A stretch of 64,000 nt of DNA, taken from an uncultured Woeseiaceae bacterium. Its GTDB lineage: Bacteria > Pseudomonadota > Gammaproteobacteria > Steroidobacterales > Woeseiaceae. The position numbers were made by a program, and so were the translations under genes. The notes beneath the pieces are model-generated. The model saw only the letters and a list, made by a program, of their open reading frames with translations, did not search any database and was not told the origin of the DNA. Positions 9,941 through 24,308 of this stretch are shown one piece after another (within the stretch, counting starts at the first letter, position 1; each line of letters opens with the position of its first letter). The DNA is taken from assembly GCA_945787845.1 (NCBI GenBank), contig CALZJH010000001.1, forward strand, positions 62,001 to 126,000. The letters run 5' to 3'.

Positions 9941-10919
9941 TGCGACCCATCAGCCAGAAGTAGAAGATATGCAGTACCCAGAAAAACGTCCCGACGGCGT
10001 ACTTGAAGCTAAGGGGCGGCCAGACTGTCGACGACCAGAACGCCTCCACGAACGCGGCCGCAACCAGCATCAGGGTGCCGCCATAGATTAAAGGCAAACC
10101 GTCGCGTGCCCGGCTGCGAATCGCCTGCCAGCGCGACTTCCGGCCGGGCGCGAGTGCGCCGTAGCCAAGCATCAGCCCTACGCCGCCAAAAATCGTGATT
10201 GCGGTCAGCTCGAAGGAGCTGTGACCGATGACGAACGACGAAAACGTTTCGGTGAAACCTGCCACCGTAAGGTGTGCCGTGACGGCGCCGAAGAAAAGGC
10301 CATTGAAAATGAGGAAAAACAGGCTCCCCAGACCGAAAATCAGGCCGCCTGCAAAGGTACGAAAGCCAATGCTGATGTTGTTGTAGATGTAGAAGCCGAA
10401 CATCTGGATATCCGAGCCCGAGTCGCGCTCCCGGCCCAGGACGTCGTTGGCCGGGTCGTACATCTCTTCCATTCGCGACACGTCGACAGGGTCGAGCAGC
10501 GAGTAAATAATCTCGGGCTGCGCGACAACGGCCAGCGCCATACCGATGGCCGGCAGATAGAACATCAGGGTGGATGCGAGCATGAATCGCCACTGCTTGC
10601 GAAACGTCCCCGGAAACTCCCTGACGAGAAATTTGCCGATCGCCGTGAAGAACGGCGTGCGTGTCCGGTACAGATGCTGATGGCCGTCGAGGGCAAGCTG
10701 GTTCAGGCGCTGCTGGAGACCGATGCTGTAGCGGCGAGTGCGCGCGAGCGCGAGGTGGTGGCAGATCTTGCGATACATGGCCGGAAAATTCTTGCTGATC
10801 GTGGCGACCGGGTCGTCGTCGGGACCACGGCGACTGCGGGGCGCGGATAACACAGCGATCCATCTTTCGAAGATGGCCCAGGATTCGGCATGCCGGGATT
10901 CGAAGGCCTCCTGTCTCAT
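9930..10919 (-). CDS. Stage II sporulation protein M-like (SpoIIM/DUF95) membrane protein
   Basis: 329 residues with about five helices after an Arg-rich N-terminal cytoplasmic region. The family core IYNNISIGFRTFAGGLIFG and FSSFVIGHSSFELTAITI are present. In non-sporulating bacteria this family is found in MoxR/RDD clusters and is not a sporulation factor. It overlaps RDD upstream by 4 bases and the DUF4129 gene downstream by 11. Confidence 0.88.
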   Translation of the reverse strand: MRQEAFESRHAESWAIFERWIAVLSAPRSRRGPDDDPVATISKNFPAMYRKICHHLALARTRRYSIGLQQRLNQLALDGHQHLYRTRTPFFTAIGKFLVREFPGTFRKQWRFMLASTLMFYLPAIGMALAVVAQPEIIYSLLDPVDVSRMEEMYDPANDVLGRERDSGSDIQMFGFYIYNNISIGFRTFAGGLIFGLGSLFFLIFNGLFFGAVTAHLTVAGFTETFSSFVIGHSSFELTAITIFGGVGLMLGYGALAPGRKSRWQAIRSRARDGLPLIYGGTLMLVAAAFVEAFWSSTVWPPLSFKYAVGTFFWVLHIFYFWLMGRNEP

Positions 10920-11599
10920 GATGAGGACCGCTCGCCGATCAACCAGTTCGCATGGCCGAGCAGCCGTGTCCTGTCGGCATCTTCGAGAACCGGCGTAAGA
11001 ATGGCGGCGAGCTCTTCGGCACGTTCTTCGTTCAGCAGGCTGGCACGCTCGCCGAAGCTGACGATCGCTTGCTGCTCGTCCAGCGTCATGGGGGTCTTCA
11101 GCGGCACCGGGGCCGTGCTGTCGGGCTTGCCGCTCGCCTGGGTCTTCGGGGCGTACACGACGATCGTGCCAGCCGCGAGGTCGCCAAGCCGCTGAAACTG
11201 CTTGCTCAAAAGAACCGATGCGCAGCCAAACGCGTAGCAGCCGGGCAATACGTCGACAAACCGGACCAGGTTGCGAATCAATGACCCGGACCAGCCCACC
11301 GGCGTGCCATTGGCGTTCATGACGCGGAGCCCCAGGGCACGTTTCCCGGGTGTTGCGCCGTGATTGAAGATCTCGAACAGGACGTTGTAGAACCAGAGCA
11401 GAACGAAAACGATGAGCAGGTAAATGCCGCCGCCGAGGTCGCCGAATACTTGCAGGAAAATCGACAGAACGGTCAGCGTTGCGGACTTGATCAGGGCATC
11501 GACAAGCCAGGCCAGAGAACGGGGTGCGAGGCCCGCGACCGGCAGGCGCAGCTCGACGCCCTCCGGCGTTCCGATGTTATAGGCGGTGTCGAGAAGCAA
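10916..11599 (-). CDS. RDD family protein, first gene of the MoxR operon
   Basis: 227 residues. It opens with an NIGTPEGVELRLPVAGLAPR-like RDD start, followed by three or four helices, ATPGKRALGLRVM and LIRNLVRFVDVLPG. A C-terminal soluble helical tail is rich in Glu. It is the first gene of the six-gene minus-strand transcript. The promoter should lie in 11600-11774, shared with the divergent thiolase gene. An AGGCGT/ACGCCT inverted repeat at 11699-11722 in that gap is a weak operator candidate. Confidence 0.88.
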   Translation of the reverse strand: MLLDTAYNIGTPEGVELRLPVAGLAPRSLAWLVDALIKSATLTVLSIFLQVFGDLGGGIYLLIVFVLLWFYNVLFEIFNHGATPGKRALGLRVMNANGTPVGWSGSLIRNLVRFVDVLPGCYAFGCASVLLSKQFQRLGDLAAGTIVVYAPKTQASGKPDSTAPVPLKTPMTLDEQQAIVSFGERASLLNEERAEELAAILTPVLEDADRTRLLGHANWLIGERSSS

Positions 11600-11774
11600 C
11601 CGACTCAGTCTTTTCTGTTATCGCACTCACGTGCGTCCAGATTATCGGTATCTGCCCGGCTATCGCAACTACCATGTACGTGGCAGACGCCGGGTTAAGG
11701 CGTGTAATCCGGACGACGCCTCGATACCATGCGTACCAGGAGACAGCTGCGGGCTTTTCAAAGGCAGATAAACA

Positions 11775-12959
11775 ATGAAAGACGTCGTAATCGTAGACAA
11801 CGTGCGTACCGGACTCGCGAAGTCGTTTCGCGGGAGCTTCAATCTCACTCGCTCCGATGACATGGTCGCCCATGTGATCGACGCGCTGCTGGAGCGCAAT
11901 CCAGAGGTATCGCCCGAGGAAGTCGAAGACGTGATCGTCGGCATAGCCATGCATGATGGTGAACAGGGCGGCAACATGGCGCGCCTGTCGACGGTTCTTT
12001 CGAAACTGCCGGTCACTACGGCAGCGTCCACGATCAATCGATTCTGCTCCTCGGGCGTTCAGTCGATCGCCTTCGCGGCTAACCAGATTGCGTCCGGGCA
12101 AACCCAGGTCGCAATGGCCGGTGGCGTCGAGTCGATCTCGATGAACCAGCGACAAAAAGCCGCCGAGTACGAACAGAACCCGCGCCTGCTCGAGGAGAAG
12201 CCGGAAATTTTCATGGCGATGGGGAACACGGCCGAGGTTGTCGCGCGCCGCTACAACGTCACGCGCGAGGCCCAGGACGAGTACGCCGTGCAAAGCCAGG
12301 CACGTTACGCGCAAGCCGTGGACGATGGCCGCATCGCCGATGAAATCGCGCCGATGAGTGCGACGATGCTGCAGGTCAACAAGGAAACCGGCGAACAAAG
12401 CAAGGTAGACGTTGTCGTCGACCGCGACGAATGTAATCGTCCCGGCACGACGATGGAAGGACTCGCAGGATTGAAGCCGGCGTTCGAGGAAAACGGAACG
12501 GTCACTGCGGGCAATGCCTCGCAGCTCAGCGATGGCGCATCGATGACCTTGCTGATGACTGCCGAGCGTGCCGAAAAACTCGGCCTCGAGCCCCTGGGGT
12601 TTTTCCGCGGTCTCGCGGTCGCAGGCTGCGAACCCGATGAAATGGGGATCGGTCCTGTCTTCTCGGTGCCGCGCCTGCTGGCGAACGCCGGCCTGTCGAT
12701 GAGCGATATCGATCTGTGGGAATTGAACGAGGCCTTTGCGTCGCAATGCGTTTACTGCCGCGATGCGCTCGAGATCGACAACGAGATCTACAATGTCAAT
12801 GGCGGCAGTATCGCGATCGGGCACCCGTTCGGCATGACCGGCTCGCGCATGACAGGCAGCCTGCTGCGCGAGCTCAAGCGCCGCGGCAAGAAATACGGCG
12901 TCGTCACCATGTGTATCGGCGGCGGACAGGGCGCATCGGCTCTGTTCGAAGCGGCCTGA
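11775..12959 (+). CDS. Thiolase (acetyl-CoA C-acyltransferase)
   Basis: 394 residues, the normal thiolase length. The acyl-accepting cysteine is Cys91 in NRFCSSGVQSIAFAA. The C-terminal catalytic motifs are also visible: NGGSIAIGHPFGMTGSR (His) and VTMCIGGGQGASALFE (Cys). The start has an AAGGCAG ribosome-binding site. It should perform thiolytic cleavage in beta-oxidation or the reverse condensation. There is no adjacent FadB-type partner, so the chain-length role is open. It is divergent from the MoxR operon. Confidence 0.93.
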   Translation: MKDVVIVDNVRTGLAKSFRGSFNLTRSDDMVAHVIDALLERNPEVSPEEVEDVIVGIAMHDGEQGGNMARLSTVLSKLPVTTAASTINRFCSSGVQSIAFAANQIASGQTQVAMAGGVESISMNQRQKAAEYEQNPRLLEEKPEIFMAMGNTAEVVARRYNVTREAQDEYAVQSQARYAQAVDDGRIADEIAPMSATMLQVNKETGEQSKVDVVVDRDECNRPGTTMEGLAGLKPAFEENGTVTAGNASQLSDGASMTLLMTAERAEKLGLEPLGFFRGLAVAGCEPDEMGIGPVFSVPRLLANAGLSMSDIDLWELNEAFASQCVYCRDALEIDNEIYNVNGGSIAIGHPFGMTGSRMTGSLLRELKRRGKKYGVVTMCIGGGQGASALFEAA

Positions 12960-13427
12960 CTAGATACCGCTGCCCTTGGTGCTGCCCGTCAGTTTCTGGG
13001 CATTCATGTCGTAGACCGCGCAGACGATTTCGCGGTCGTCCTCGCGCCAGCTCTGCGGCGACGGGAACATCGAGGTGATGTCGAGTGCCGAGGACTCGTA
13101 GTCCGTACCGACATAGCCCTCGAAACGGTCCATGCAGGCTTCGAATGCAAGCTCGGACATCCCGTCGTCGCCGGGATAGTCGGCAATGTTCACATCGAAC
13201 ACGGCATAGGTCTCGTTGTCGTGAGGTTCCGTACAGGGAACGCCGGGCACCGAGCTGACCTCGTCGAAGGTATCGATATCATTGAAGCAGTCGCCGACAC
13301 GAAGATTGAACGCGTCAATGCTCCCTTCGCCCACGATTGCGCCGCTTTCGTCCCTGTCGGCAGTCGTTGATGCACCGTAGATGGCGAATCCCGCAATCGC
13401 CGCAAGATAAACAGCCCAATTTTTCAT
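12960..13427 (-). CDS. Septum-formation-domain exported protein
   Basis: 155 residues from ATG 13427, chosen because GGGAGA lies just upstream and a signal peptide (MKNWAVYLAAIAGFAIYGAS) then starts the protein. The mature part has LRVGDCFNDID, VPCTEPHDNETYAVFD and a late FEACMDRFEGYVG segment. These match the Cys-containing layout of the Septum_form family (LxxGDCF ... VPCxxPHxxE). That family is best known from actinobacteria, where its role is poorly defined. The gene ends adjacent to the thiolase stop with no spacer. Confidence 0.75.
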   Translation of the reverse strand: MKNWAVYLAAIAGFAIYGASTTADRDESGAIVGEGSIDAFNLRVGDCFNDIDTFDEVSSVPGVPCTEPHDNETYAVFDVNIADYPGDDGMSELAFEACMDRFEGYVGTDYESSALDITSMFPSPQSWREDDREIVCAVYDMNAQKLTGSTKGSGI

Positions 13428-13569
13428 AATGTCTCCCTGGCGCCATAGCGCGTCCATGCACCGCCAGATCATCCGCGATCGGCGGCTGAAAACGAACGAC
13501 ACAGGTCTCGGTTTTCGAGAAAAACCCGGTTTGTTATTCTCGGGCGTCCTGACGAATTATGAGGTCAAC

Positions 13570-13989
13570 ATGTCCGCTTACATCGATCCCGAGCGCAAGC
13601 AGTTCGACGCCTTCAAGGCATTGCCCCGAGACCTGCCGGTGATGATGCTCAACCTGGTACGGCTGCGGGACAAGGCCGCTTACGAGGACGGCTGCGACGC
13701 AACCGGCGCTGAAGCGTACGCGGCCTACGGTCGCGAAAGCGCACCGGTATTTCAGCGGGTTGGCGGAGAGATCGTCTGGCGCGGCCGTCCTGAAAACGTG
13801 CTGATCGGTCCGGGCGACGAGCACTGGGACATCGTATTCGTTGCTCGATATCCGACCGCAGGTGCATTTCTCGAGATGGTGACCGATCCGGACTACCGGG
13901 TTGCCGTCAAACACCGCCAGGCGGCGGTGCTCGATAGCCGACTGATCCGGACCGGCGAAGTCGATGAAGGCAGCGGCTTTGCCGGATAG
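13570..13989 (+). CDS. DUF1330 (ferredoxin-like fold) protein
   Basis: 139 residues from ATG 13570, chosen for the GAGG site five bases upstream. The sequence shows the dimeric alpha-beta-barrel pattern of DUF1330: PVMMLNLVRLRDKAAYEDG, EAYAAYGRESAPVFQRVGGEIVWRG and WDIVFVARYPTAGAFLEMV. These are small cytoplasmic proteins of unknown biochemical role. It stands alone between minus-strand genes. Confidence 0.85.
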   Translation: MSAYIDPERKQFDAFKALPRDLPVMMLNLVRLRDKAAYEDGCDATGAEAYAAYGRESAPVFQRVGGEIVWRGRPENVLIGPGDEHWDIVFVARYPTAGAFLEMVTDPDYRVAVKHRQAAVLDSRLIRTGEVDEGSGFAG

Positions 13990-14013
13990 CGAAGCCCGGG
14001 TGAGCCCGCCGGA

Positions 14014-14526
14014 TTACCTCGAGGTTTCTGCGTGACGCTCTTCCAGGATCACGAGCAGGGCCTTTCTCTCGACCAGGAGGTCCTTGAAGGCCTCGTTCTG
14101 CATGGCCACGATCAGCATTCTTCTCCCCAGCTCTTTCTCGTAGTGAGCCTCGTTGGGTACCGGCTTCGGCGACCACGTGGATGCCTCGTCCTCACTCATC
14201 TCCTCGACGGCGTCCCAGTAGATGTTCGTTTTGCAAAGGGTTCGTGGAAACTGGCTGCCGACGGGCCGATGCTCCCGGCACACGATGTCAAAGTTGTTGT
14301 CGTCGTTGAGCCGGTTGAATTCCTTGTAGAGCCGCGCTTCGACGAGCCTGAGCTGCTCCCGGATCTTCGGCACCGGGGTTTTCCCGGTAATGACGATTTC
14401 CTCGATCGTCGAATCGCCGGCGGGCGTTTCGGCAGCGGCCGGGGCGAGAATCAACGCCAGGGATATCGACGCGAGCACTCCTCGCCAATGCCGTTTTTCA
14501 ACCAGTGACATTCCCTTCACTCCCAA
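14014..14526 (-). CDS. Exported protein of unknown function with TonB-box-like IEEIVITGK motif
   Basis: 170 residues (a second Met at 14511 is an alternative start). After a signal peptide ending APAAAET comes STIEEIVITGKTPV, a string typical of proteins whose N-terminus precedes TonB-dependent plug domains. No barrel follows. The rest is a Glu/Arg-rich soluble domain with two Cys in FDIVCREHRPVG...TLCKTN that could pair. I do not recognise the family; it is probably periplasmic. Confidence 0.65.
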   Translation of the reverse strand: MGVKGMSLVEKRHWRGVLASISLALILAPAAAETPAGDSTIEEIVITGKTPVPKIREQLRLVEARLYKEFNRLNDDNNFDIVCREHRPVGSQFPRTLCKTNIYWDAVEEMSEDEASTWSPKPVPNEAHYEKELGRRMLIVAMQNEAFKDLLVERKALLVILEERHAETSR

Positions 14527-14552
14527 TCTTGAAAGATAAGGTCAGCGCATGG

Positions 14553-14662
14553 TCATAGTGGCAGGTAAATGACCGTGTTCGAAATCAGGATCATTACGAA
14601 TATCAGCGCCGTCACCATCGGGCCGAGGTAGATCTTGCGTGCAACCAGGCGGAATCTCCATA
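14553..14662 (-). pseudogene. Detached 3' end of the membrane-hydrolase gene
   Basis: On the minus strand this encodes KIYLGPMVTALIF and then the last residues through YLPL and a stop. That is the C-terminal helix of the hydrolase at 17980-19815. The final codons differ only synonymously (CTG CCA CTA TGA here, CTG CCG TTG TAG in the intact gene). Upstream of KIYLG the match breaks down, leaving only a faint FRLVAR/FRMTG resemblance. It has no start and no ribosome-binding site, so it is a remnant. The rest of the 14527-14818 gap has lower GC by eye and no other gene that I can see. Confidence 0.8.
14560..14638. repeat. 79-base perfect direct repeat, left copy (attachment-site candidate)
   Basis: Identical base for base to 17987-18065, in the same orientation. 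The two copies are 3,427 bases apart and bracket the PhnD-like and GGDEF-EAL genes. Identity stops abruptly at both ends. Confidence 0.9.
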
Positions 14663-14818
14663 TTCTCGCGTTGGTGCAAGTGGCAATTGCGTGATTTGCG
14701 TCTCAGCGGACCCAGGCGATAATTTGGCATAGTTTCAAGTGCTTATATTTCATTTGGCCGCTAACCGCGGATACGAGCGTTCGACCTGGATCGTTGTTGG
14801 CATGAATCGAAAGTCACG

Positions 14819-15766
14819 ATGCACCATTTAACAATAAACATATTCGCGCGCCTGACGTTGATTGTGTTGCTTGTCAGCGGCATGAACAGCTTTGCCGATG
14901 AGTCACACGATACAATGCCGCGCCTGCTCGTCATGGCCGCGATCAGCGACAACCCGAGGGGTATCCACGAGGCGATGCAACCCATGGCCGACTATATGGC
15001 CGGCAAGCTCGCCCCAATTGGCATAGAAAGCGTCGAAATCATGGTGGTTGACAGCCATGAACAGATGGTGCTTCTGCTGCGCGAAAAAAAGGTGGACTGG
15101 ATTACCGAAACGGCCTATTCCGCTGTGTTACTCCAAAGAAGGGCCGGGGCTGTTGCTTTGGTGAGAAAGTGGAAACAGGGCGTTCCTGAGTACCGGAGCG
15201 TGGTATTCACACGCAAGAGTAGCGATGTTCAGGGTCTTGATGGCCTGGTGAATCGCAAAATCGCATTCCAGCATCGCGGCTCCACGACGGGTTATTTTGT
15301 CGTAGCGTCAGCGTTGAAATCGGCCGGTTATCGACTGCAGCAATTGGGGTCCGTGTACGAGCAACCGGCGGCCGGTGAATTGGGTTACGTGTTTTCGGGC
15401 GCCGAATACAACTCCGCTATCTGGGTACACAAGGGCATCGTCGATGCGGGAGTCATTAGCAGTATTGACTGGCAGCAGGAGAGCACGCTGCCCGAGAAGA
15501 TACGGGAAGACATGAGCGTCATCTACACGAGTCCGCCCATTCCAAGGGCGCTGGAGTTGGTTCGTGGTGATCTCAATCCAACCGTCAAGGCGGCGATGAA
15601 GCAAGCATTGCTTGCGGCCCACCTCGATCCCGAGGCGAGCATGGCGCTGGCCGCTTATCACGGTACCAGCAAGTTCGACGCGCTGGACGGAAACGCGGTC
15701 GCGGCGCTAGGGCTGATTGACGCGGCCATCATGGAAGAGACTTCGGAACCGGTGAGCTCGCCATGA
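14819..15766 (+). CDS. PhnD-like periplasmic substrate-binding protein
   Basis: 315 residues with a signal peptide ending near GMNSFADES. It has the type-2 periplasmic binding fold pattern of the phosphate/phosphite/phosphonate PhnD family: AMQPMADYMAGKLAPIG, VDWITETAYSAVLLQRR, GLDGLVNRKIAFQHRGSTTGYF and the PPIPRALEL segment. There is no ABC permease or ATPase. Its stop overlaps the GGDEF-EAL start by 4 bases. I infer that it is the ligand-binding partner of that membrane sensor and not a transport component. The ligand is unknown. Confidence 0.85.
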   Translation: MHHLTINIFARLTLIVLLVSGMNSFADESHDTMPRLLVMAAISDNPRGIHEAMQPMADYMAGKLAPIGIESVEIMVVDSHEQMVLLLREKKVDWITETAYSAVLLQRRAGAVALVRKWKQGVPEYRSVVFTRKSSDVQGLDGLVNRKIAFQHRGSTTGYFVVASALKSAGYRLQQLGSVYEQPAAGELGYVFSGAEYNSAIWVHKGIVDAGVISSIDWQQESTLPEKIREDMSVIYTSPPIPRALELVRGDLNPTVKAAMKQALLAAHLDPEASMALAAYHGTSKFDALDGNAVAALGLIDAAIMEETSEPVSSP

Positions 15767-17961
15767 AACCGGGCGTTCGTTTAAATCTGCAAGCGCGTTA
15801 CACGGTACAAATAGTGATTGTTATTGCCGTAATCGCCGTAAGTCTGACCTTGCTCTCCGCAATGCAGTTCAAATCCAGGGCGGATGAGATCAGTGGCGTG
15901 ACAAGTGATTCATTCGCAGTGCATTTACATGACGAGGTACGTGAACGCGGCTGGGTATTGGAAGCTAACCTGGCGCCAAGCCTGGCGATCCCGTTACTGC
16001 ACCTGGACATGCGAGCAATGCGTGAGCAGTTACAGGCGACGGTTTCTCAGCAAGATGTAATGTTCGCCTACGTTTACGATGTGGATGGGAAGATCGTCCA
16101 CGATGGAAGTGACGAAGTCTCTATGTACGGCCAGCACATAGATGAAAGTCTGGGATGGCCCGCCAGCGAGCTAACGCGACCACACCAGCATATGGTCAAC
16201 AACGAATTGCACGTTGTCTCACCTGTGCTGCTTGGTGACAAGAGCATGGGTGCTATCGCGATTGGCATTTCCCTCGATAGCGCCAACGCCAAAATCTTCG
16301 AGCTGGAAGAAGACATAGAAGATCTGCATGCGGAAAACAGGCGCGATGAATTACGTATCGCTGGAGTCTTTACTGTCTTATCGCTGGCGCTTGGCTCATT
16401 GTTCGCGCTGTTTTCCGGTTATCGGCTGGCCAAGCCCATGCGCGTCCTTGCCCGCCAGGCGCAACGTGTTGGCCAGGGCGTTTTCGAAGATGAGATCGTT
16501 ATTCGCCGAAATGATGAAGTTGGAGATCTCGCGAACTCGTTTCGAACGATGAGCTACGACTTGCAGGCAAGTAACAGGGAGATCAATTTCCTGGCTTACC
16601 ACGATGTACTGACCGGCCTGCCCAACAGGGTGCGCTTCAAGGAAAAACTGGACGAATTGTGCAATGGCTGTAAAGAGCAGGGATCGCTAGGCGCCGTTCT
16701 GTTCGTCGACCTGGATGAATTCAAGCCCATCAACGACACGCTGGGACATTATGCGGGCGACGCGTTGTTGTGCGAAGTGGCAGATCGGCTGCAACAATGC
16801 CTGCGAACGCCACCCTACCAGAAGTGGTGTCTCGACGGTGGCGAAGCACAGTCCGTCGCTCGCCTCGGCGGCGATGAGTTTGCCATTGCCTTGAAGGGCC
16901 TTGACGATCCGGAAGATGCCGCATCGGTGGCCAAGACGGTGCTTGCCGAGTTGTCGACGCGGTTTCGGATAGCGGGTGAAGACGTCACCATCGGCGCCAG
17001 TATAGGAATCGCTATTTGCCCAGACGACGGACGTGACGCTGACAGTTTGCTCGGGTATGCGGACATGGCAATGTACAGCGTCAAACGTGCCGGCAAACAA
17101 TCGTATCGTTTCTATGAAGAATTCATGTACGAGAGCACTCGCGACCGAGTTCATTTGATCAGGGACCTGCGGCGCGCACTCGATAACAACGAGCTGCAGC
17201 TTCGGTACCAGCCGATTGCCGACAGCGACAGCGGCAGAACGGTTGGCGCTGAAGCGCTGGTGCGCTGGCACCACCCGGATCGCGGATTAATGCATGCCGG
17301 CGAGTTTATAGATTTAGCCGAAAAATCGGGAGAAGTCAGTCGCCTGGGCCGCTGGGTTCTGGATCGTGCTTGTCAGGATCTTGTCGCATGGAGAAAACAG
17401 GGCATCGATGAGTTTTTCGTTTCCATAAACCTCTCGTCGCAACAGATGCTGCACGATGATCTGCCGGAATTCGTTACTGCTTCGCTCGAGCAGCACGGGC
17501 TGAGCACGTCCGACCTGCGGCTCGAAGCCGGCGAAGACAGTTTTTTTGCGGATGACGACGGTGTGATCGACCTCTTGAATGTATGGACAGAGGCCGGCTA
17601 CGAGGTTTGGGTTGACCAATTCGGTTCGGGGCCCGCTTCGCTGCTCAATTTGCTGCGCGTGCGGCCACACGGTGTCAAGCTCAGTCCGGCGTTCATTTTG
17701 GACATCACGGTCGATCCGCGGGCACGGCAGTTCGTCGAGGGAATCCTGGCTTTCGCGAGAATGGTGAATCTGGATGTGTGTGCAGTTGGGGTTACGAGCG
17801 AGGCCGCAGCGAACTGGTTGCGAGAACACGGTTGCCGATACTTGCAAGGGCAATACCTCGGGCCGGAACTCAGCGTATCGGATCTGGCCGATTACCTGGA
17901 GTTCCAGCCCGCCAACGACCGCACGCTATCGGGAAAATTCAATCTGAAAGCCCTGAACTAA
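15763..17961 (+). CDS. Membrane GGDEF-EAL protein with HAMP; EAL probably inactive
   Basis: 732 residues: TM1 about 12-33, a dCache-like periplasmic sensor about 40-195, TM2 about 200-222, HAMP about 222-275, GGDEF about 280-450 and EAL about 465-715. The GGDEF motif is intact (residues 369-373). The usual RxxD inhibitory site five residues upstream is EAQS, so product inhibition is unlikely. In the EAL domain E497-A-L is present, but the DDFGTG metal motif reads DQFGSG (D618-Q619) and KID reads KLS. Two normally conserved acidic ligands are therefore gone. I infer a diguanylate cyclase with a regulatory EAL module, coupled to the PhnD-like protein. Confidence 0.9.
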   Translation: MKPGVRLNLQARYTVQIVIVIAVIAVSLTLLSAMQFKSRADEISGVTSDSFAVHLHDEVRERGWVLEANLAPSLAIPLLHLDMRAMREQLQATVSQQDVMFAYVYDVDGKIVHDGSDEVSMYGQHIDESLGWPASELTRPHQHMVNNELHVVSPVLLGDKSMGAIAIGISLDSANAKIFELEEDIEDLHAENRRDELRIAGVFTVLSLALGSLFALFSGYRLAKPMRVLARQAQRVGQGVFEDEIVIRRNDEVGDLANSFRTMSYDLQASNREINFLAYHDVLTGLPNRVRFKEKLDELCNGCKEQGSLGAVLFVDLDEFKPINDTLGHYAGDALLCEVADRLQQCLRTPPYQKWCLDGGEAQSVARLGGDEFAIALKGLDDPEDAASVAKTVLAELSTRFRIAGEDVTIGASIGIAICPDDGRDADSLLGYADMAMYSVKRAGKQSYRFYEEFMYESTRDRVHLIRDLRRALDNNELQLRYQPIADSDSGRTVGAEALVRWHHPDRGLMHAGEFIDLAEKSGEVSRLGRWVLDRACQDLVAWRKQGIDEFFVSINLSSQQMLHDDLPEFVTASLEQHGLSTSDLRLEAGEDSFFADDDGVIDLLNVWTEAGYEVWVDQFGSGPASLLNLLRVRPHGVKLSPAFILDITVDPRARQFVEGILAFARMVNLDVCAVGVTSEAAANWLREHGCRYLQGQYLGPELSVSDLADYLEFQPANDRTLSGKFNLKALN

Positions 17962-17979
17962 GGCTTCACCCGGGTACCA

Positions 17980-19815
17980 CTACAACGGCAGGTAAATGAC
18001 CGTGTTCGAAATCAGGATCATTACGAATATCAGCGCCGTCACCATCGGGCCGAGGTAGATCTTGCCGGTCATGCGGAAGAAGTAGCGATTGAAATAGGGC
18101 AGGAAGAACATCATCGGAACGACGCCAAACAACAGGTTTACGTAGAGCCAGCCATCGGTCCAGTAGACGGTGCCCGTCGTGGCAAACGTCAGGTACTGCA
18201 CAACGACGATCAGCAGCAGACCCAACGAGTTCGCTACGCCCCCGAGCAGCATGCTGCGCCATTCGGGCTGGTCCTCGAATCGCATCGCCGCATTGATCCG
18301 CAGCGAATTGGAGAGGAAGAAGACAAAGAACAGCGGTACGTACATGGCCAGAAGCAACAGCAGCTCCGGCTGGAACGGGCGCACGCCCATAAAGAGAAAG
18401 CGGTAGTCGACGTGCAGGAAATAGTAGATGGCGAAAAGTATCAGGAAGAACGCTGCGAACAAAAGCAATGCGAGCGCCAGCGTCTTGCCGAGTTCCCTGG
18501 CCGTTGTCGCCGCCCCCCAGTACGCAGGCGTGATGCCGTGACGGCGACCGAAGTAGCGATACGTTAGCCAGAACATCAGGAAACCAACCGTCCCGTTGAG
18601 AATCGCCCACAGCATGACGGCGTTGTTCATGCGCTGCGGGAAAAACCAGGTGAGCTGGCGCGTCGATGCGGCGACGAATAACTTCTGGGACAGCTCCGCC
18701 ATGGGTATATAGGTCACACAGGCAATGGCCGCGCCAAAAGTGAACGCCGTCCAGAAGACAAACCGTCCCCGCCCGGCAGGCCGCGGTAGCGGCGGCGGAA
18801 TCGTGTTGACCAGTTGCCTGAACGGGGCGGTTTGCAACAGGAAGTGGCCCATCGGGATAATGGCAACCAGCGCCGCGATCAGTGCGATTACCCCGAGAAT
18901 CTCCCGCCACTGCCAGACCTGGTCATAGGGGTCGAGTCCGCTCTGCACATCGAAGACCTTCTCGAAGTACGTGATCTGGTTGGCGATCGCCTCGGCCATG
19001 TAGGGTTGGAACGGGTGCAGATTGCGCTCGTTATGAATCACCCGGAGAGTTCGCTGCTGCAGGTCGCCGTAGTAACGCCCGAGTTCGACTTTGGAGATGG
19101 CCTCACTCTCCGGCAACCCGGAATTCACGGCGCGCAGCGCCTCGGGGGCAATCCGCATATCGCCGTCGCCGTATTCATTGCGGTAGGCGCCCTCGTCGTA
19201 GAGCGCGTACGCCACACCGACGTTGGACCGCACGTTCTGCAGGACCTCGTCGGTCAACGTGAGGACATAGCCCGAGACGTACACCGAATGCAGCTTGCTG
19301 AGGTTGCCGGTTCTCGCCGCCTCACGGCCGAAGTAGTTCGCGCCGCGAATGGCCGCGTTGCCGCCGGCCGAATGGCCGGTGGCTCCGATCATCGAACGGT
19401 CGACGTAGTTGAGGTTGGTGCTGCTCGCGACATAGTCGACGAGCGCAAACATGCCATAGCCTTCCGTGGTTGCGGCAATGCGGCTTAGCGAGGCACTTGA
19501 GGAGCCCTGTGCATAGGGGTCAATAGATGCCGCCACAAAGCCGCGACGAGAGAGCTCGATCGCGACATTCGACAGCGCCTCTTTGGACCGCTGGAAACCG
19601 GGAATGACCACGACAAACGGTGCAGGCGAGTCGGCCGTGACAGACCGCGGCTTAAACAGATCGGCTACAACCCACTGGCCGTTGTGCGTCGGTATCTTGA
19701 TTGAGTCGACGTGCACCTGTCCGCCGCTGTTCTGTATTCGCGAGGCTGCCCAGCACGACAGAACAAGAACGAGGAGCGCGCCCAGCAACAGTTTCGATTG
19801 TCCCCTGTTCGACAT
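17980..19815 (-). CDS. Alpha/beta hydrolase fused to an eight-helix membrane domain
   Basis: 611 residues from ATG 19815, where the GGGA-preceded start puts a signal anchor (LLLGALLVLVLSCWAA) at the N-terminus. Residues about 35-310 form an alpha/beta hydrolase of dienelactone-hydrolase/PET-esterase-like type with nucleophile Ser149 in GATGHSAGGNAA. The remainder has about eight membrane helices and ends in LIFVMILISNTVIYLPL. The hydrolase part is probably periplasmic. Its last 79 bases are duplicated at 14560. No transport or enzymatic role can be assigned to the membrane half. Confidence 0.8.
   Translation of the reverse strand: MSNRGQSKLLLGALLVLVLSCWAASRIQNSGGQVHVDSIKIPTHNGQWVVADLFKPRSVTADSPAPFVVVIPGFQRSKEALSNVAIELSRRGFVAASIDPYAQGSSSASLSRIAATTEGYGMFALVDYVASSTNLNYVDRSMIGATGHSAGGNAAIRGANYFGREAARTGNLSKLHSVYVSGYVLTLTDEVLQNVRSNVGVAYALYDEGAYRNEYGDGDMRIAPEALRAVNSGLPESEAISKVELGRYYGDLQQRTLRVIHNERNLHPFQPYMAEAIANQITYFEKVFDVQSGLDPYDQVWQWREILGVIALIAALVAIIPMGHFLLQTAPFRQLVNTIPPPLPRPAGRGRFVFWTAFTFGAAIACVTYIPMAELSQKLFVAASTRQLTWFFPQRMNNAVMLWAILNGTVGFLMFWLTYRYFGRRHGITPAYWGAATTARELGKTLALALLLFAAFFLILFAIYYFLHVDYRFLFMGVRPFQPELLLLLAMYVPLFFVFFLSNSLRINAAMRFEDQPEWRSMLLGGVANSLGLLLIVVVQYLTFATTGTVYWTDGWLYVNLLFGVVPMMFFLPYFNRYFFRMTGKIYLGPMVTALIFVMILISNTVIYLPL
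17987..18065. repeat. 79-base perfect direct repeat, right copy (3' end of hydrolase gene)
   Basis: Partner of 14560-14638. Here it forms the last codons of the intact hydrolase gene. The outermost codons, CCG TTG TAG, differ synonymously from the left copy. That is expected if a mobile element supplied a substitute 3' end on insertion. Confidence 0.9.
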
Positions 19816-19877
19816 GGAAGTCCCGATCTTGTGGAAACGCCCAGTTGAGACAAAGCGGAAGGTCAAGTCAACAGAAA

Positions 19878-19898
19878 AGGCCCCTTGAGGAGGGGCCT
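19878..19898 (-). terminator. Intrinsic terminator/attenuator hairpin on minus strand
   Basis: An 8-base perfect stem (AGGCCCCT/AGGGGCCT) with a 5-base loop. On the minus strand it is followed at once by TTTTCTGTT. It lies 63 bases upstream of the hydrolase start codon, so it could be a leader attenuator. Alternatively it could end a minus-strand transcript coming from DUF4097 at 20357-21292, which would run antisense through the MAPEG gene. Confidence 0.6.
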
Positions 19899-19956
19899 GC
19901 CAGCGGATGCGTTCTGGTAAGCTGCCTCACGCGCTCGCAATGAGAAGGAGAAAAGC

Positions 19957-20364
19957 ATGCAGCTACCCATAACATTGATGTACGCCGGCATCTTCGCGAT
20001 CTTCGCGCTGTTGCTCAGCTTCATGGCCGGCAGCGCCCGCGGCAAATCAGGTATCTCGATCCTGTATGGCGACCCCGCCGACATGAAGCTCAGCGAAAAG
20101 GTCCGCCGTCACCAGAACTTCCTCGAGTACGTACCGCTGTTCCTGATCGTATTTGGCGCGCTCGAAGCCAACGGCGTTTCTCCGCTGTTCCTGTATATCG
20201 TCGGTGATCTTATGATCGTCGCGCGCATCTTCCATGCGTTTGGACTTCATCACGACAACATGGCCCATATCGGGCGCCTGATAGGCGCCGGCGGCACGGC
20301 ACTCCTGACTCTGGTCTGTTCGTGCTACGCGATCTGGCTGTCGGCGAGCGAACTGCTTAGTTGA
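19957..20364 (+). CDS. MAPEG family membrane protein
   Basis: 135 residues with four membrane helices. The MAPEG core is visible: KVRRHQNFLEYVPLFLIVFGALEANG, followed by VARIFHAFGLH and GRLIGAGGTALLTL. The family includes glutathione-dependent membrane enzymes; bacterial members are mostly uncharacterised. A GAGAAGGAG-type ribosome-binding site precedes the ATG. Its 3' end overlaps the convergent DUF4097 gene by 8 bases. Confidence 0.92.
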   Translation: MQLPITLMYAGIFAIFALLLSFMAGSARGKSGISILYGDPADMKLSEKVRRHQNFLEYVPLFLIVFGALEANGVSPLFLYIVGDLMIVARIFHAFGLHHDNMAHIGRLIGAGGTALLTLVCSCYAIWLSASELLS

Positions 20365-21292
20365 CGCGGATGCCGCCCGACGAGGTGTCGATCCTGAGGA
20401 GGTCACCACCACCACGAACGTCGCCACGGATGTGACGCTTCGAGATCTTTCCCTGCACCATGACGGGATGATCGATGACGATACTTCCGGAACTCGACTC
20501 CGCATCCAGCTGGAACGCGGCGTCGTCAGGAAGGTCGATCTGGACTGAACCGGAACCCGTGTCGAGGTCCCAGGTTCCGCGCTGCCTGCCATCGACCCTG
20601 ATGCGGCCGCTGCCGGCACGTGCGTGCAGCGCGCCGTCGATATTGTGGAGTTCGATGCTTCCCGAGCCGGTCGAAACCCTCACATCGCCGGGCGCAGACT
20701 GCGTGAGGGTAATGCTGCCACTCCCAGTATCGCCCTCAAAAGTGCCGGCAATACCATTCGCGCGTATCGAGCCACTGCCCGTGTCGGCGACGGCGCCGCC
20801 ACTGATATTGCTGAGTGTGACGCTGCCCGAGCCGGAATCGGCTTTAACGATCTCGGCCACACCGTCGATCGTCATGGATCCTGAGCCAGTATCGGATTTC
20901 ACGCGGGTCGCGGCGGGTACCGTGATTTCGTAGCTGATCGAGATGTTGCCTTTCAGACCGCGGCCCTTCAGGTAGCCAACGCGCAGGCTGTCGCCATCCA
21001 GCTCAATCGGGGGGTCGGCCAAAATCCGGTCCAACAGCTCCTGCGCATTGTCTTCGCTGCGCCGAAACCAGGAGTTCCCGACTTTGACATGGCCCACGAT
21101 TTCAACGCGGTCGACGGCGCCGGCCTCGATGGTGATGCTGCCGCTGCCCGTCGACACGTCCAGCAAAATGGGCTCTTCGACGCTAAGTGCCTGTTCGAAC
21201 GAGCCTTTTGCCGCGCGAGCTTCGGATGCCCACAGGCTGGCTACGAGCGCGACACCTAATGCAATCCATAATCCGTTCGACTTCAGATTCAC
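20357..21292 (-). CDS. DUF4097 beta-helix exported protein
   Basis: 311 residues with a signal peptide ending ASEARAAKG. The mature protein is a ladder of about 20-residue rungs built on (T/D)(T/S)GSGS, visible at least eight times (DTGSGSMTIDG, DSGSGSVTLSN, DTGSGSIRANG and so on). This is the DUF4097 putative adhesin/head-GIN layout, predicted to fold as a right-handed beta-solenoid at the cell surface or in the periplasm. Role unknown. The next gene upstream on this strand is the thioesterase at 21379-21831. Confidence 0.88.
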   Translation of the reverse strand: MNLKSNGLWIALGVALVASLWASEARAAKGSFEQALSVEEPILLDVSTGSGSITIEAGAVDRVEIVGHVKVGNSWFRRSEDNAQELLDRILADPPIELDGDSLRVGYLKGRGLKGNISISYEITVPAATRVKSDTGSGSMTIDGVAEIVKADSGSGSVTLSNISGGAVADTGSGSIRANGIAGTFEGDTGSGSITLTQSAPGDVRVSTGSGSIELHNIDGALHARAGSGRIRVDGRQRGTWDLDTGSGSVQIDLPDDAAFQLDAESSSGSIVIDHPVMVQGKISKRHIRGDVRGGGDLLRIDTSSGGIRVN

Positions 21293-21378
21293 TGTTCTTC
21301 CTCCGGGGCGCTTGCCCCTAAAAACCGGTTCTACAGCTTAGATACCTGCCAGGCGGTTTTGGTTGCGATGCACTCGGA

Positions 21379-21831
21379 TCATTTGAGCCAGACGACGTAG
21401 AGGCCCTGCATCGTCGCGCAGCGCTTGTCCTCGTGAAACAGGTCGACTTGGATATCCAGCCGGATGCGCCCGGGGTCGCTGGCCTTGAGCGTGGCCAGGC
21501 AGGCCTCGAAATCGTCGGGCTTGATGGTCGCGTTCACGGTCAGGTGGCCACGGGCCGGTCGCTCGAAGGTCATTTCATTCTTGTAGACGACGATCTCGGT
21601 GTTCTCGATACCGTTGTCGAGGAATGCCAGCGTTGACACGGCCCAGCCACTAAACAGGCAGATGCTGGCGATGCTGCCGCCGAACGCCGTGCCCTTGTTG
21701 TTGATGTTCGGCGCGAGCGGCGCCTCCATCGTCAACGTCAGGTTGTCAAAGTCGACAAACGACAGGTGCATCGCCGTGAGCAACGGAATATCCCGCCGGC
21801 ACTCGGCTTCGAAGGCATTCAGGTCTATCAT
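21379..21831 (-). CDS. YiiD-type hotdog thioesterase domain protein
   Basis: 150 residues from ATG 21831 ([18 protein letters not shown]); a Met six codons upstream is possible. The hotdog-fold core [20 protein letters not shown], followed by [12 protein letters not shown], matches the YiiD_C/thioesterase group. [13 protein letters not shown] lies in the later strand region. It is divergent from the acyl-CoA dehydrogenase with 30 bases between starts, which hints at shared control of acyl-CoA metabolism. Confidence 0.85.
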
Positions 21832-21861
21832 GCGGTATCCGAACAGCACCCGGAGTCATTG

Positions 21862-23073
21862 ATGGATTTCGAATTCTCACCCAAGGTACAGGATCTTCGC
21901 AAACGCCTGCTCGCTTTCATGGATGAGCACATCCACCCGAATGAGGTGCTGTTCGAGGAACAGGTGGCTGACGGCAATCGGTGGGCCGCGCCTGAGCTTC
22001 TGTCAGACCTGAAGCAGCGCGCACAGGCGGAAGGTCTGTGGAACCTGTTCCTGCCGCAGAGCTACGGGGAATTCAGCCCGGGCCTCACCAATCTCGAGTA
22101 CGCACCGTTGGCGGAGATCATGGGCCGCGTCCTGTGGGCGTCGGAGGTTTTCAATTGCAGCGCCCCGGACACCGGTAACATGGAAGTACTGGCACGCTAT
22201 GGCAGCCCGGCGCAGCAGGAAAAATGGCTGACGCCGCTCTTACGCGGTGAGATTCGCTCTGCTTTTTGCATGACCGAGCCCGAGGTCGCCTCATCGGATG
22301 CCACCAATATTGAAACGTCGATGCTGCGCGACGGCGACGAATACGTGATCAACGGCCGCAAGTGGTGGTCCAGTGGCGCCTGCGGTGAGCGCTGCAAGGT
22401 GTACATCGTCATGGGCAAGACGGACCCTGGAAACGAGAACCGCTACCGACAGCAATCCATGATTCTCGTTTCGGCCGACGCAGATGGCGTTACGGTAGAG
22501 CGTCCGCTGAAGGTGTTCGGCTATGACGACGCGCCGGAAGGTCACGCAGAAGTCGTTTTCGACAACGTTCGCGTACCGGCGGCCAACCTGCTGCTTGGCG
22601 AAGGGCGCGGGTTCGAAATTGCTCAGGGGAGACTCGGTCCCGGTCGCATTCATCATTGTATGCGCCTGGTCGGGCTCGCACAGCGCGCACTCGAGGCCAT
22701 GTGTGTTCGCGCCGAAACCCGAGTGGCCTTCGGTCGCCCGTTGTCGAAACAGCAGTCCGTTCGCGAGCAGATCGCGAGATCAGCTTGCGAGATCGAGCAG
22801 GCTCGATTGCTGACGCTCAAGGCGGCCGATCGCATGGACAAAGGCGGCCACAAGGCGGCCAAGGACCTCATCGCCATGATCAAGATTGTCGCGCCGTCGA
22901 TGGCTTGCCGGGTTCTGGATCGAGCCATACAGGTTCATGGCGGTGCCGGCGTCTGCCAGGATTTTTTCCTGGCGCACGCTTATGCGGCAGCACGGACGAT
23001 CCGCCTCGCCGACGGACCCGACCAAGTGCATATGATGCAGCTGGGCCGCAACCTGGCGGCCGCGTCGATTTAG
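21862..23073 (+). CDS. Acyl-CoA dehydrogenase
   Basis: 403 residues from ATG 21862 ([16 protein letters not shown]). The upstream in-frame extension overlaps the divergent thioesterase gene, so I rejected it. FAD/acyl-CoA motifs: [40 protein letters not shown] and [19 protein letters not shown]. The length and C-terminus suit the ACAD11/FadE-like soluble type. It catalyses the first step of beta-oxidation. The electron acceptor (ETF) is not encoded nearby. Confidence 0.92.
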
Positions 23074-23169
23074 AGTTTGAGGTGTCATACATAGGTCAGC
23101 GAACGGCCGGTAAGCGTTTAAAAGCGATCGGTGAAACCTCTGAATTCGCGCTATCATGGGTGACTGCTT

Positions 23170-23192
23170 CTGACCCGAAGCGGAAGTTCGCC
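23170..23192 (+). repeat. Short dispersed motif, copy 1
   Basis: An intergenic CTGACCCGAAGC core followed by GGAAGTTCGCC. It matches 17 of 23 bases with 26600-26622. Both copies lie in non-coding spacers and may be degraded members of a dispersed repeat family. The 23074-23351 spacer otherwise holds only the terminator below. Confidence 0.4.
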
Positions 23193-23266
23193 AAACACGC
23201 TTGGCAGCGTAAAGCTCGAGACGCCATGCCCGGCTCGCACTTTCGTAATCGCATAATCGTAAACAA

Positions 23267-23290
23267 AAGGGCCGCCGAATAGCGGCCCTT
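23267..23290 (-). terminator. Intrinsic terminator between convergent genes
   Basis: A nine-base perfect stem (AAGGGCCGC/GCGGCCCTT) with a six-base loop. On the minus strand it is followed by TTTGTTT after the stem's own TT, giving a strong terminator for the SGNH hydrolase gene that ends at 23352. It may also act weakly on the plus strand for the acyl-CoA dehydrogenase. Confidence 0.85.
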
Positions 23291-23351
23291 CTTGCACTAG
23301 CTGAATGCCAGGTTCTTCCGTGGTGGGGAAGGCCTGTTCGCCTCTGCCAGG

Positions 23352-24308
23352 TTACGGCAGTTGTCCAAGCACATGTTCTGCGATCAGAGCGTGTACTTTT
23401 CTCGTCGGGTGCAATTGATCCCAGAAGACGTATTCATCGCGGTTTTTGCAGAACGCGTCTTTGAGCACGTCGGGGGTGACACAAGCGTCCGTGACGTTGG
23501 TAAAACCGTAATCCTCGGGATTCAACACTAACCCGCCGACGAAATTGAACAGATCGACGTCCGAGAAATTCATTCTCGCGAGATTGGGTAGCACGACACT
23601 GGGCTGCAGGAAGTAATTGTTGTACATCAAGCTCAGAACCGGTTCGATCTCTTCCGGCGGCCGGCCCCCGTTCGAAATCGGCCCGTACTCGACGGGTGGC
23701 AAATTCGTGAACAGGAGGTTGCGCGCTCCGCAGTCGTAGAGTCTGTCTATGTTGGCGGCGATACTGAGTGCCATGCCATTCATGATGGCCATTGCCGCCC
23801 CGATATCGGGTTCAGGTGGCGCCATTACAGCCATGATGTCGAGCAGGTCCGCGTAACCGGAATCCACGATAAACAGCGTGTCTTCCATCGGAGCGTAGGT
23901 GCAGTAACCATTGTTCATCCAGTCGGTTACCTGCGAGGTAAGGTTCTTCGGGATGGCGTAATCGCTTCCTTGTGCGCGGCCGTAGGCAAAGGCATAGTTG
24001 CCGAAAGCGGGATCGCGATACGCCGGTTTACCCCATTCGGTCAGCTCCATTTCCCGTGCTAGGACCTCGACCCAGGTGGGACCGTTGGTGGGACGATGTC
24101 CACCAATGCCGTAGCTGGCAAACTCAATCAGCTCGAATGGTGGGTGCGCGGTCTCCCCGGTGACCGCGAAATGGTTGCCGGGATCCATGAAGCTGGCACC
24201 AAAGATAAAGATACGTTTATAGCCGTGGTCAGGTTCCGCGAAAGCCATCCCGGCCGCCAGTGGCAGCAGCGCCAGAATGGCGACGATCATGCGTCTCAAA
24301 GTAGTCAT
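23352..24308 (-). CDS. Exported SGNH/GDSL-like lipase/esterase
   Basis: 318 residues from ATG 24308, set by a near-perfect AAGGAGGAGG site and a signal peptide (MIVAILALLPLAAGMAFAEP). Block I reads FIFGASFMDPGN, with nucleophile Ser39; the usual GDS is GAS, so the preceding Asp is Ala. Later blocks are present: SYGIGGHRPTNGPTWVEVLA, FTNLPPVEYGP, and the Asp-His pair in VFWDQLHPTRKVHALIAEHV. The architecture matches secreted GDSL lipases of the thermolabile-haemolysin/autotransporter-esterase type without the barrel. It is divergent from a winged-helix regulator. Confidence 0.85.
   Translation of the reverse strand: MTTLRRMIVAILALLPLAAGMAFAEPDHGYKRIFIFGASFMDPGNHFAVTGETAHPPFELIEFASYGIGGHRPTNGPTWVEVLAREMELTEWGKPAYRDPAFGNYAFAYGRAQGSDYAIPKNLTSQVTDWMNNGYCTYAPMEDTLFIVDSGYADLLDIMAVMAPPEPDIGAAMAIMNGMALSIAANIDRLYDCGARNLLFTNLPPVEYGPISNGGRPPEEIEPVLSLMYNNYFLQPSVVLPNLARMNFSDVDLFNFVGGLVLNPEDYGFTNVTDACVTPDVLKDAFCKNRDEYVFWDQLHPTRKVHALIAEHVLGQLP

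What the first reader, a model, noticed from the sequence alone, without database searches (positions are those of the whole stretch)
14553..18065. Two-gene signalling island bracketed by a perfect 79-base direct repeat at a gene's 3' end
Copies at 14560-14638 and 17987-18065 are identical and in the same orientation. The right copy is the real 3' end of the membrane hydrolase gene; the left is a displaced 3' end with its own stop and synonymous changes in the last codons. Order intact gene end, cargo, displaced end is what site-specific elements leave when they integrate at a 3' end and supply a substitute end. Yet the 3.4-kb cargo holds only the PhnD-like and GGDEF-EAL genes, with no recombinase. 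It may be a recombinase-less element moved in trans, or a decayed one.
Basis: partly seen in the sequence, partly recalled or inferred. Interest (0 to 1): 0.7.

Follow-up and report, generated by a model that had tools for sequence, protein, structure and literature searches.

The report
Displaced gene tail beside acquired genes
A short exact copy of the end of a membrane enzyme gene sits on the far side of two acquired signalling genes; comparison with relatives suggests a patchwork left by ordinary DNA exchange rather than the scars of a jumping element.

Summary
The 79-base repeat is real, perfect and has only two copies in this genome. An assembly error is unlikely: contigs here overlap by exactly 99 bases, more than the repeat. 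The two signalling genes look acquired (low GC, atypical codons). But the nearest relative found (G081, hydrolase 94% identical) carries the same two genes at the same place without the left copy. Their synonymous divergence is within, at the top of, the range of their neighbours, so the pair appears inherited and the repeat younger or gene-converted. What this genome alone has is a 1.1-kb block (13528-14638): a DUF1330 gene, an orphan gene and the hydrolase tail. The only PF00589 recombinases are XerC and an XerD-like protein; no PF00239. Best reading: the block came from a relative in which the hydrolase is followed by the orphan gene, joined by homology on the septum-formation side and end-joined within the hydrolase tail. 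No such donor was found. An older insertion kept identical by gene conversion is the main rival. Ordinary mosaicism; low to moderate interest.

The parts
14560..14638 (-). Left copy of the 79-base repeat, a displaced fragment of the hydrolase 3' end
   Evidence: 79/79 identical to 17987-18065; absent from G081 at this place
14553..14559 (-). End of the displaced tail: remaining bases of Pro-Leu-stop, CCA CTA TGA in gene sense, 5 of 9 bases different from the intact end
   Evidence: sequence
17987..18065 (-). Right copy of the repeat, inside the intact hydrolase gene
   Evidence: aligned with the same stretch in 9 relatives' loci
17980..19866 (-). Membrane alpha/beta-hydrolase-like gene (628 aa; weak PETase-type match, below the Pfam cut-off)
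   Evidence: 22 of 73 genus genomes, this one included, match it
14819..15766 (+). Phosphonate/phosphate-type periplasmic binding protein (PF12974)
   Evidence: best solved relative 5ub3, E 1.4e-48
15763..17961 (+). HAMP-GGDEF-EAL protein, overlapping the binding-protein gene by 4 bases; GGDEF motif intact, EAL metal-site residues changed
14641..17986 (.). Acquired two-gene cassette, shared with G081 at the same site
   Evidence: GC of 14640-17980 is 0.554 against 0.603 for the window outside 13528-18065
13528..14638 (.). Block present here and not in G081 or G090: DUF1330 gene, orphan gene, hydrolase tail; G081 has 79 bp here that do not align
   Evidence: alignment with G081 breaks at 13527 and resumes at 14641 (spacer length)
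13570..13989 (+). DUF1330 gene (139 aa from this start)
   Evidence: PF07045, found with the longer ORF 13429-13989; 78% aa identical homologue elsewhere in G081, dS about 2.1
14014..14526 (-). Orphan 170-aa gene with no Pfam or NCBIfam match; first gene downstream of the displaced tail
   Evidence: best other relative 36% in 107 family genomes
12960..13502 (-). Septum-formation-domain gene (PF13845), conserved left neighbour
   Evidence: next to thiolase in G081, G090 and G064

Best explanation
The locus was built in steps in the spacer between a septum-formation-domain gene and a MAPEG gene. First the hydrolase gene entered. Then the binding-protein/GGDEF-EAL pair was acquired next to the hydrolase 3' end, before this lineage split from G081. 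Later, in this lineage only, the 1.1-kb block 13528-14638 took the place of about 80 bp of spacer. The block probably came from a close relative in which the hydrolase gene is followed directly by the orphan gene, the DUF1330 gene and the septum-formation gene. Recombination would have been homologous on the thiolase/septum-formation side. On the other side the incoming DNA ended 79 bases plus the last codons inside the hydrolase gene and was end-joined upstream of the binding-protein gene. This would be homology-facilitated illegitimate recombination. The displaced tail is then a scar, not an attachment site. Shown: the repeat, the cassette shared with G081, the block missing in G081 and G090, the foreign composition of the cassette, and no PF00589 or PF00239 recombinase other than Xer. 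Inferred: the order of events, the donor arrangement and the end-joining.
For: G081 has the cassette at the same place with no left copy, no orphan gene and no DUF1330 body there. Cassette dS 0.48 and 0.49 against 0.13-0.49 for eight neighbours: inherited. The two copies differ at 0 of 79 bases, while this genome and G081 differ at 4 of 79 in the same stretch; an unconstrained left copy should have gained about a dozen changes since the split (inference from hydrolase dS 0.31), so the left copy is young or converted. The G081 spacer resembles the pre-insertion spacer of G064 (0 of 5000 shuffles; 2 of 2041 genomic windows outside the locus; anchored test 0 of 300). Different Pro-Leu-stop codons argue for a second hydrolase allele; chance of Leu-stop 0.0026. 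Block genes have native-like codon usage and the cassette genes do not. PF00589 search found XerC and an XerD-like protein only, PF00239 search nothing. A ComEC-type gene is present. The mechanism and a like outcome are described in PMC3240628 (abstract), PMC2884548 and PMC5361080 (passages).
Against: No genome with hydrolase followed by orphan gene and DUF1330 was found: in 44 loci fetched around orphan-gene or DUF1330 homologues, most with about 1.5 kb on each side, no second gene of this neighbourhood was found, and the hydrolase search covered 73 genus genomes. The spacer argument is moderate: this genome's own block start is also weakly like the G064 spacer (75 of 2041 windows; anchored 1 of 300, or 7 of 300 without the shared first bases) and like the G081 spacer (71 of 2041; anchored 2 of 300 and 17 of 300), and the G090 spacer is not like G064's (3606 of 5000 shuffles reach its score). 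A weak DUF1330-start likeness in the G081 spacer (211 of 2735 windows) could mean that G081 lost the block, though 8 other DUF1330 loci gave no clear support (5 to 54 of 95 background windows score as high). The identical 79 bases beside 5-of-9 different bases need a recombination boundary close to the stop codon. G081 is a single genome, 86% complete.
Confidence: 0.5

Rival explanations
1. Older displaced end. The cassette entered the hydrolase 3' end in the common ancestor of this genome and G081, bringing its own hydrolase end and pushing the old tail, orphan gene and DUF1330 away. G081 later deleted the displaced tail and the two genes, and gene conversion kept the two tails identical here.
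For: The layout (intact end, cargo, displaced end, older neighbours) is what such an insertion leaves. Similar displacement is modelled for V. cholerae type VI effector modules and, as the paper says, was hypothesised for Rhs loci (PMC5361080 passages). A weak likeness between this genome's block start and the G081 spacer, ending in the DUF1330 start, exists (31 of 5000 shuffles; 71 of 2041 windows).
Against: Needs gene conversion that stops at both edges of the 79 bases and a deletion in G081 ending within a few bases of the same edge. The G081 spacer looks more like the pre-insertion spacer of G064. G090 also lacks the orphan gene and DUF1330 at this place.
Confidence: 0.22
2. Site-specific integrative element without its own recombinase, moved in trans: the 3427-bp unit is the element and the 79-mers are attL and attR.
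For: Direct repeat at a gene 3' end, the gene end restored with synonymous codons, foreign composition.
Against: G081 holds the cassette without the repeat. Of the recombinase families searched, PF00589 gave only XerC and an XerD-like protein and PF00239 nothing; other families were not searched. The first 30 bases of the 79-mer have no exact match in viral contigs. No second hydrolase end in 98 loci. The binding protein has no phage match and 47 plasmid matches, all under 60% identity.
Confidence: 0.08
3. Assembly chimera of two strains with different DNA between the septum-formation and hydrolase genes.
For: 79 is a k-mer length used by some assemblers (recalled), and the left copy begins exactly where two alleles would merge.
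Against: 14 pairs of contig termini in this genome share exactly 99 bases, so the final graph probably used words longer than the repeat. No overlap that a graph could follow is seen at the join after the left copy. No N in the window.
Confidence: 0.07
4. Target-site duplication or simple local copying of the hydrolase end during insertion of the cassette or block.
For: Perfect identity of the copies.
Against: The ends differ at 5 of 9 bases just beyond the identical stretch and still encode Pro-Leu-stop (chance 0.0026). 79 bases is far longer than transposase target duplications (recalled).
Confidence: 0.05

Closest known systems
Displaced genes in V. cholerae type VI effector-immunity arrays, and Rhs orphan ends as that paper cites them (PMC5361080, passages read)
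   Same: New module anchored in a conserved stretch, older downstream genes retained and shifted; the authors propose a process akin to homology-facilitated illegitimate recombination and know of no evidence for an integrase
   Different: Here the anchor is a membrane hydrolase, not a toxin, the cargo is a signalling pair with no toxin-immunity logic, and the block rather than the cargo seems to be the recent arrival
Homology-facilitated illegitimate recombination (PMC3240628 abstract; PMC2884548 passages)
   Same: One homologous side, one non-homologous join, replacement of a resident segment
   Different: Inferred from sequence only; donor allele not found
Integrative elements in protein-coding genes, such as SGI1 at trmE 3' end and islands at dusA 5' end (search listing and start of abstract only, PMC8409611, PMC4482086)
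   Same: Insertion at the end of a protein-coding gene that stays intact; that such elements are flanked by direct repeats is recalled
   Different: No recombinase found here, and the cargo is present in a relative without the repeat
Phosphonate-type binding protein next to a GGDEF-EAL protein
   Same: 12 of 15 loci found in other genomes of the order have both genes adjacent
   Different: In this window's protein the EAL metal-site residues are changed: DDFG to DQFG, KID to KLS, EGVE to VGVT; the EAL domains of the 12 others were not examined

Membership tests
Site-specific integrative element at a gene 3' end | Direct repeats flank the unit | tested here: met
   79/79
Site-specific integrative element at a gene 3' end | Own site-specific recombinase | tested here: not met
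   Two genes in the cargo; five antisense ORFs there match no Pfam family. In the genome PF00589 gives XerC and an XerD-like protein, PF00239 nothing
Site-specific integrative element at a gene 3' end | Cargo is bracketed by the repeat wherever it sits | tested here: not met
   G081 carries the cargo without the left copy; it is the only other close carrier found in 61 genus genomes
Site-specific integrative element at a gene 3' end | Exact empty site in a relative | tested here: inconclusive
   G090 has hydrolase next to septum-formation gene with no cargo, but also no orphan gene or DUF1330 there
Site-specific integrative element at a gene 3' end | Excised circle | not testable with these tools
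   no reads available
Product of homology-facilitated illegitimate recombination | One side joined through homology | tested here: inconclusive
   Septum-formation side aligns across G000, G081, G090, G064, but the donor is unknown
Product of homology-facilitated illegitimate recombination | Other side joined without long homology | tested here: inconclusive
   No significant hydrolase likeness beyond the left copy (228 of 1729 background windows score as high); donor unknown
Product of homology-facilitated illegitimate recombination | Route for DNA uptake | tested here: inconclusive
   ComEC-type gene present, PF03772, E 5.2e-54; other competence genes and function not tested
Displaced tips of toxin loci (Rhs, type VI) | Toxin-immunity cargo | tested here: not met
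   Cargo is a binding protein and GGDEF-EAL
Active EAL phosphodiesterase | Complete metal site (DDFGTG, KID, EGVE) | tested here: not met
   Alignment; DDFGTG and other metal ligands as in passages of PMC5301497; the residue mapping is mine
GGDEF diguanylate cyclase | Intact GGDEF motif | tested here: met
   RLGGDEF, motif start at residue 369, also in G081; activity not tested

The most novel reading that the evidence does not exclude
The 3427-bp unit is a minimal recombinase-less element that integrates at the hydrolase 3' end with a recombinase supplied by an absent partner, carrying a substitute gene end and a signalling pair; G081 would hold a fixed remnant that lost one attachment site.
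Probability: 0.05. Interest if true: 0.6.

Novelty: new member of a known kind. Interest (0 to 1): 0.24.

Why it matters
It shows how a convincing attachment-site signature can arise without any integrase, and that one sister genome can help tell the two apart. If the mosaic reading is right, gene ends serve as anchors for stepwise exchange of neighbouring genes in this environmental lineage, as proposed for toxin loci. The repeat itself could also let the signalling pair be lost cleanly by recombination between the copies, leaving the hydrolase protein unchanged (inference).

Tried and rejected
Rejected: chance repeat (79/79). Repeat elsewhere in the genome (only two matches). tRNA target (none in the window) and known RNA family (none in 10000-24000 at gathering threshold). 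Recurring displaced hydrolase ends: first test 89 loci, repeated with a sounder self-match filter on 98 of 99 loci (L064 holds no hydrolase 3' end): four 14-base matches only, no second hydrolase end. These 98 include some genomes fetched twice and loci of differing length, and come from the best 80 of 196 relatives in one collection plus genus genomes. Hydrolase fragments at contig starts in G013, G025 and G026 looked at first like broken repeats; in G013 and G025 they are contig ends in other neighbourhoods; in G026 two similar tails on two contigs differ at 9 of 141 bases and I did not resolve whether they are two copies or two strains. Inverted hydrolase remnant in the G081 spacer: 24 of 29 bases, 0 of 300 shuffles but 8 of 2603 genomic windows with several targets tried, so not accepted. 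Extension of the left copy beyond 79 bases: not significant. Phage or plasmid carriers. Promoter and terminator scan gave no more sites than shuffles. Paper searches for a binding-protein/GGDEF pair: PhnD+GGDEF+periplasmic+c-di-GMP gave 0; phosphonate+substrate-binding protein+diguanylate cyclase+periplasmic+adjacent gave 0; the 9 papers listed show nothing on the pair in title or start of abstract; a search for the code of the nearest solved structure listed two papers, of which I saw only the listing. Not searched: recombinase families other than PF00589 and PF00239.
Full report
Observation. The direct repeat is exactly as described: 14560-14638 and 17987-18065, 79 of 79 bases, same orientation, 3427 bases apart, and a search of the genome gave only these two copies. 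The right copy ends the 628-aa minus-strand hydrolase gene 17980-19866. The left copy ends in its own stop at 14553. In gene sense the last codons are CCG TTG TAG on the right and CCA CTA TGA on the left: 5 of 9 bases differ but the meaning is the same. The chance that unrelated DNA supplies Leu-stop there is 0.0026 at this base composition, so two hydrolase alleles are probably involved.

Is it an assembly artefact? The window genome has 33 contigs. Fourteen pairs of contig termini share exactly 99 bases (66 termini fetched, 4 masked), which points to a word length of 99. A 79-base repeat is shorter than that, so each copy should be tied to its flanks by words longer than itself. Words carried over from an earlier, shorter stage of assembly cannot be fully excluded.

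The cargo. Between the copies lie a PF12974 binding protein (14819-15766) and a HAMP-GGDEF-EAL protein (15763-17961), overlapping by 4 bases; five antisense ORFs of 80 aa or more match no Pfam family. GC of 14640-17980 is 0.554 against 0.603 for the window outside 13528-18065; 7 of 607 windows of that length, those over the region itself included, are as low. Codon fit of the two genes (0.041, 0.009) lies outside the range of the 16 reference ORFs from 24000-64000 that also made the reference (0.111-0.352; ORFs over 300 aa kept only if third-position GC exceeds first-position GC), while the DUF1330 and orphan genes (0.169, 0.158) lie inside. So the pair is probably acquired. In the order, 14 of 296 genomes, this one and G081 included, match the binding protein; in 12 of the 15 loci found in the other genomes a GGDEF-EAL gene is next door, and the other three are the weakest matches. 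The pair is thus a recurring unit. In this window's protein the GGDEF motif is intact, but the EAL domain reads DQFG for DDFG, KLS for KID and VGVT for EGVE. These are metal or active-site positions by the passages read in PMC5301497 (the residue mapping is mine), so it is probably a cyclase with a non-hydrolysing EAL domain (inference).

Relatives. The hydrolase is found in 22 of 73 genus genomes, the binding protein in 2 of the 61 of them searched for it; both counts include this genome. Three relatives share the septum-formation neighbourhood. G064: thiolase, septum-formation gene, MAPEG, with neither hydrolase nor cargo between. G090: septum-formation gene, about 80 bp, hydrolase, MAPEG. 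G081: septum-formation gene, binding protein, GGDEF-EAL, hydrolase, MAPEG. This genome: septum-formation gene, DUF1330, orphan gene, displaced tail, binding protein, GGDEF-EAL, hydrolase, MAPEG. The spacer has therefore been filled in steps. Alignment between this genome and G081 breaks at 13527 and resumes at 14641, directly after the left copy; in between G081 has 79 bp that do not align, the equality with the repeat length being without known meaning. So the left copy is the edge of a block that, of these four genomes, only this one has.

Timing. Between this genome and G081, dS is 0.48 and 0.49 for the two cargo genes and 0.13-0.49 for eight neighbours: the cargo was most simply inherited from their common ancestor at this site. 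In the repeat stretch this genome and G081 differ at 4 of 79 bases, whereas the two copies here differ at none. If the duplication were as old as the cargo, the unconstrained left copy should carry about a dozen changes (inference from hydrolase dS 0.31). So the left copy is young, or has been converted.

Which state is ancestral? The G081 spacer aligns collinearly with the G064 spacer: 0 of 5000 shuffles reach its score, and 8 of 2071 genomic windows, or 2 of 2041 once windows over the locus itself are left out. For this genome's block start against G064 the figures are 185 of 5000, 84 of 2071 and 75 of 2041; for this genome against G081 31 of 5000, 77 of 2071 and 71 of 2041. A test anchored at the shared left edge gave 0, 1 and 2 of 300 with the shared first bases, and 0, 7 and 17 of 300 without them. 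The G090 spacer does not resemble that of G064 (3606 of 5000). This favours G081 as ancestral and the block as an addition here, with moderate support. A weak likeness of the G081 spacer to the DUF1330 start (211 of 2735 windows) points the other way; eight other DUF1330 loci gave no clear support for it.

Mechanism. The two PF00589 recombinases of the genome are XerC (above the NCBIfam cut-off) and an XerD-like protein at a contig end (323.2 bits, cut-off 329.6); no PF00239 recombinase was found; other recombinase families were not searched. A ComEC-type gene is present. The best-supported account is homologous joining on the septum-formation side and end-joining inside the hydrolase tail, with DNA from a relative whose hydrolase is followed by the orphan gene. 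The donor has not been found: in 44 loci around orphan-gene or DUF1330 homologues no second gene of this neighbourhood was seen. The closest published pattern is the stepwise displacement in V. cholerae type VI loci, where the authors propose a process akin to homology-facilitated illegitimate recombination and see no evidence for an integrase (PMC5361080, passages); general accounts are PMC3240628 (abstract) and PMC2884548 (passages).

Verdict. The reading as a site-specific element is not favoured, because the cargo exists in the nearest relative found without the repeat and no suitable recombinase was found. The feature is most likely a scar of genome mosaicism, with one open rival (old displacement plus gene conversion). 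A single sister genome, itself 86% complete, carries most of the weight of this conclusion.

Noticed in passing
window 15763-17961: GGDEF-EAL protein with intact GGDEF but changed EAL metal-site residues, also DQFG in G081: probably a cyclase with a non-hydrolysing EAL domain.
   Followed up: partly
window 14014-14526: Orphan 170-aa gene (signal-like start, judged by eye); homologues in 26 of 107 family genomes, this one included, best other identity 36%.
   Followed up: partly
window 511-1356 within ORF 89-3520: Two repeated segments of about 76% identity, 516 bases apart, inside a 1143-aa ORF that looks like an extracellular nuclease-type protein with repeated domains (naming is from recall, no family search run).
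   Followed up: no
L056 6449-6736: In G090 the thiolase gene seems to lack its middle (matches residues 4-38 and 330-393 only): internal deletion or assembly fault.
   Followed up: no
L019 and L020 (G026): Two similar hydrolase tails on two contigs of one genome, 9 of 141 bases different: second copy or mixed strains.
   Followed up: no
L065-L144: The membrane hydrolase family recurs at 54-94% identity in records titled as many phyla (Verrucomicrobia, Planctomycetes, Acidobacteria, SAR86 and others; best 80 of 196 seen), perhaps by horizontal spread.
   Followed up: no
spacer between septum-formation gene and MAPEG, window 13503-19956: Repeated insertion at one spacer: hydrolase, signalling pair and block in successive relatives, possibly a small hot spot. 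Parts of the neighbourhood also lie near the hydrolase in G093 and G065 in other arrangements.
   Followed up: partly
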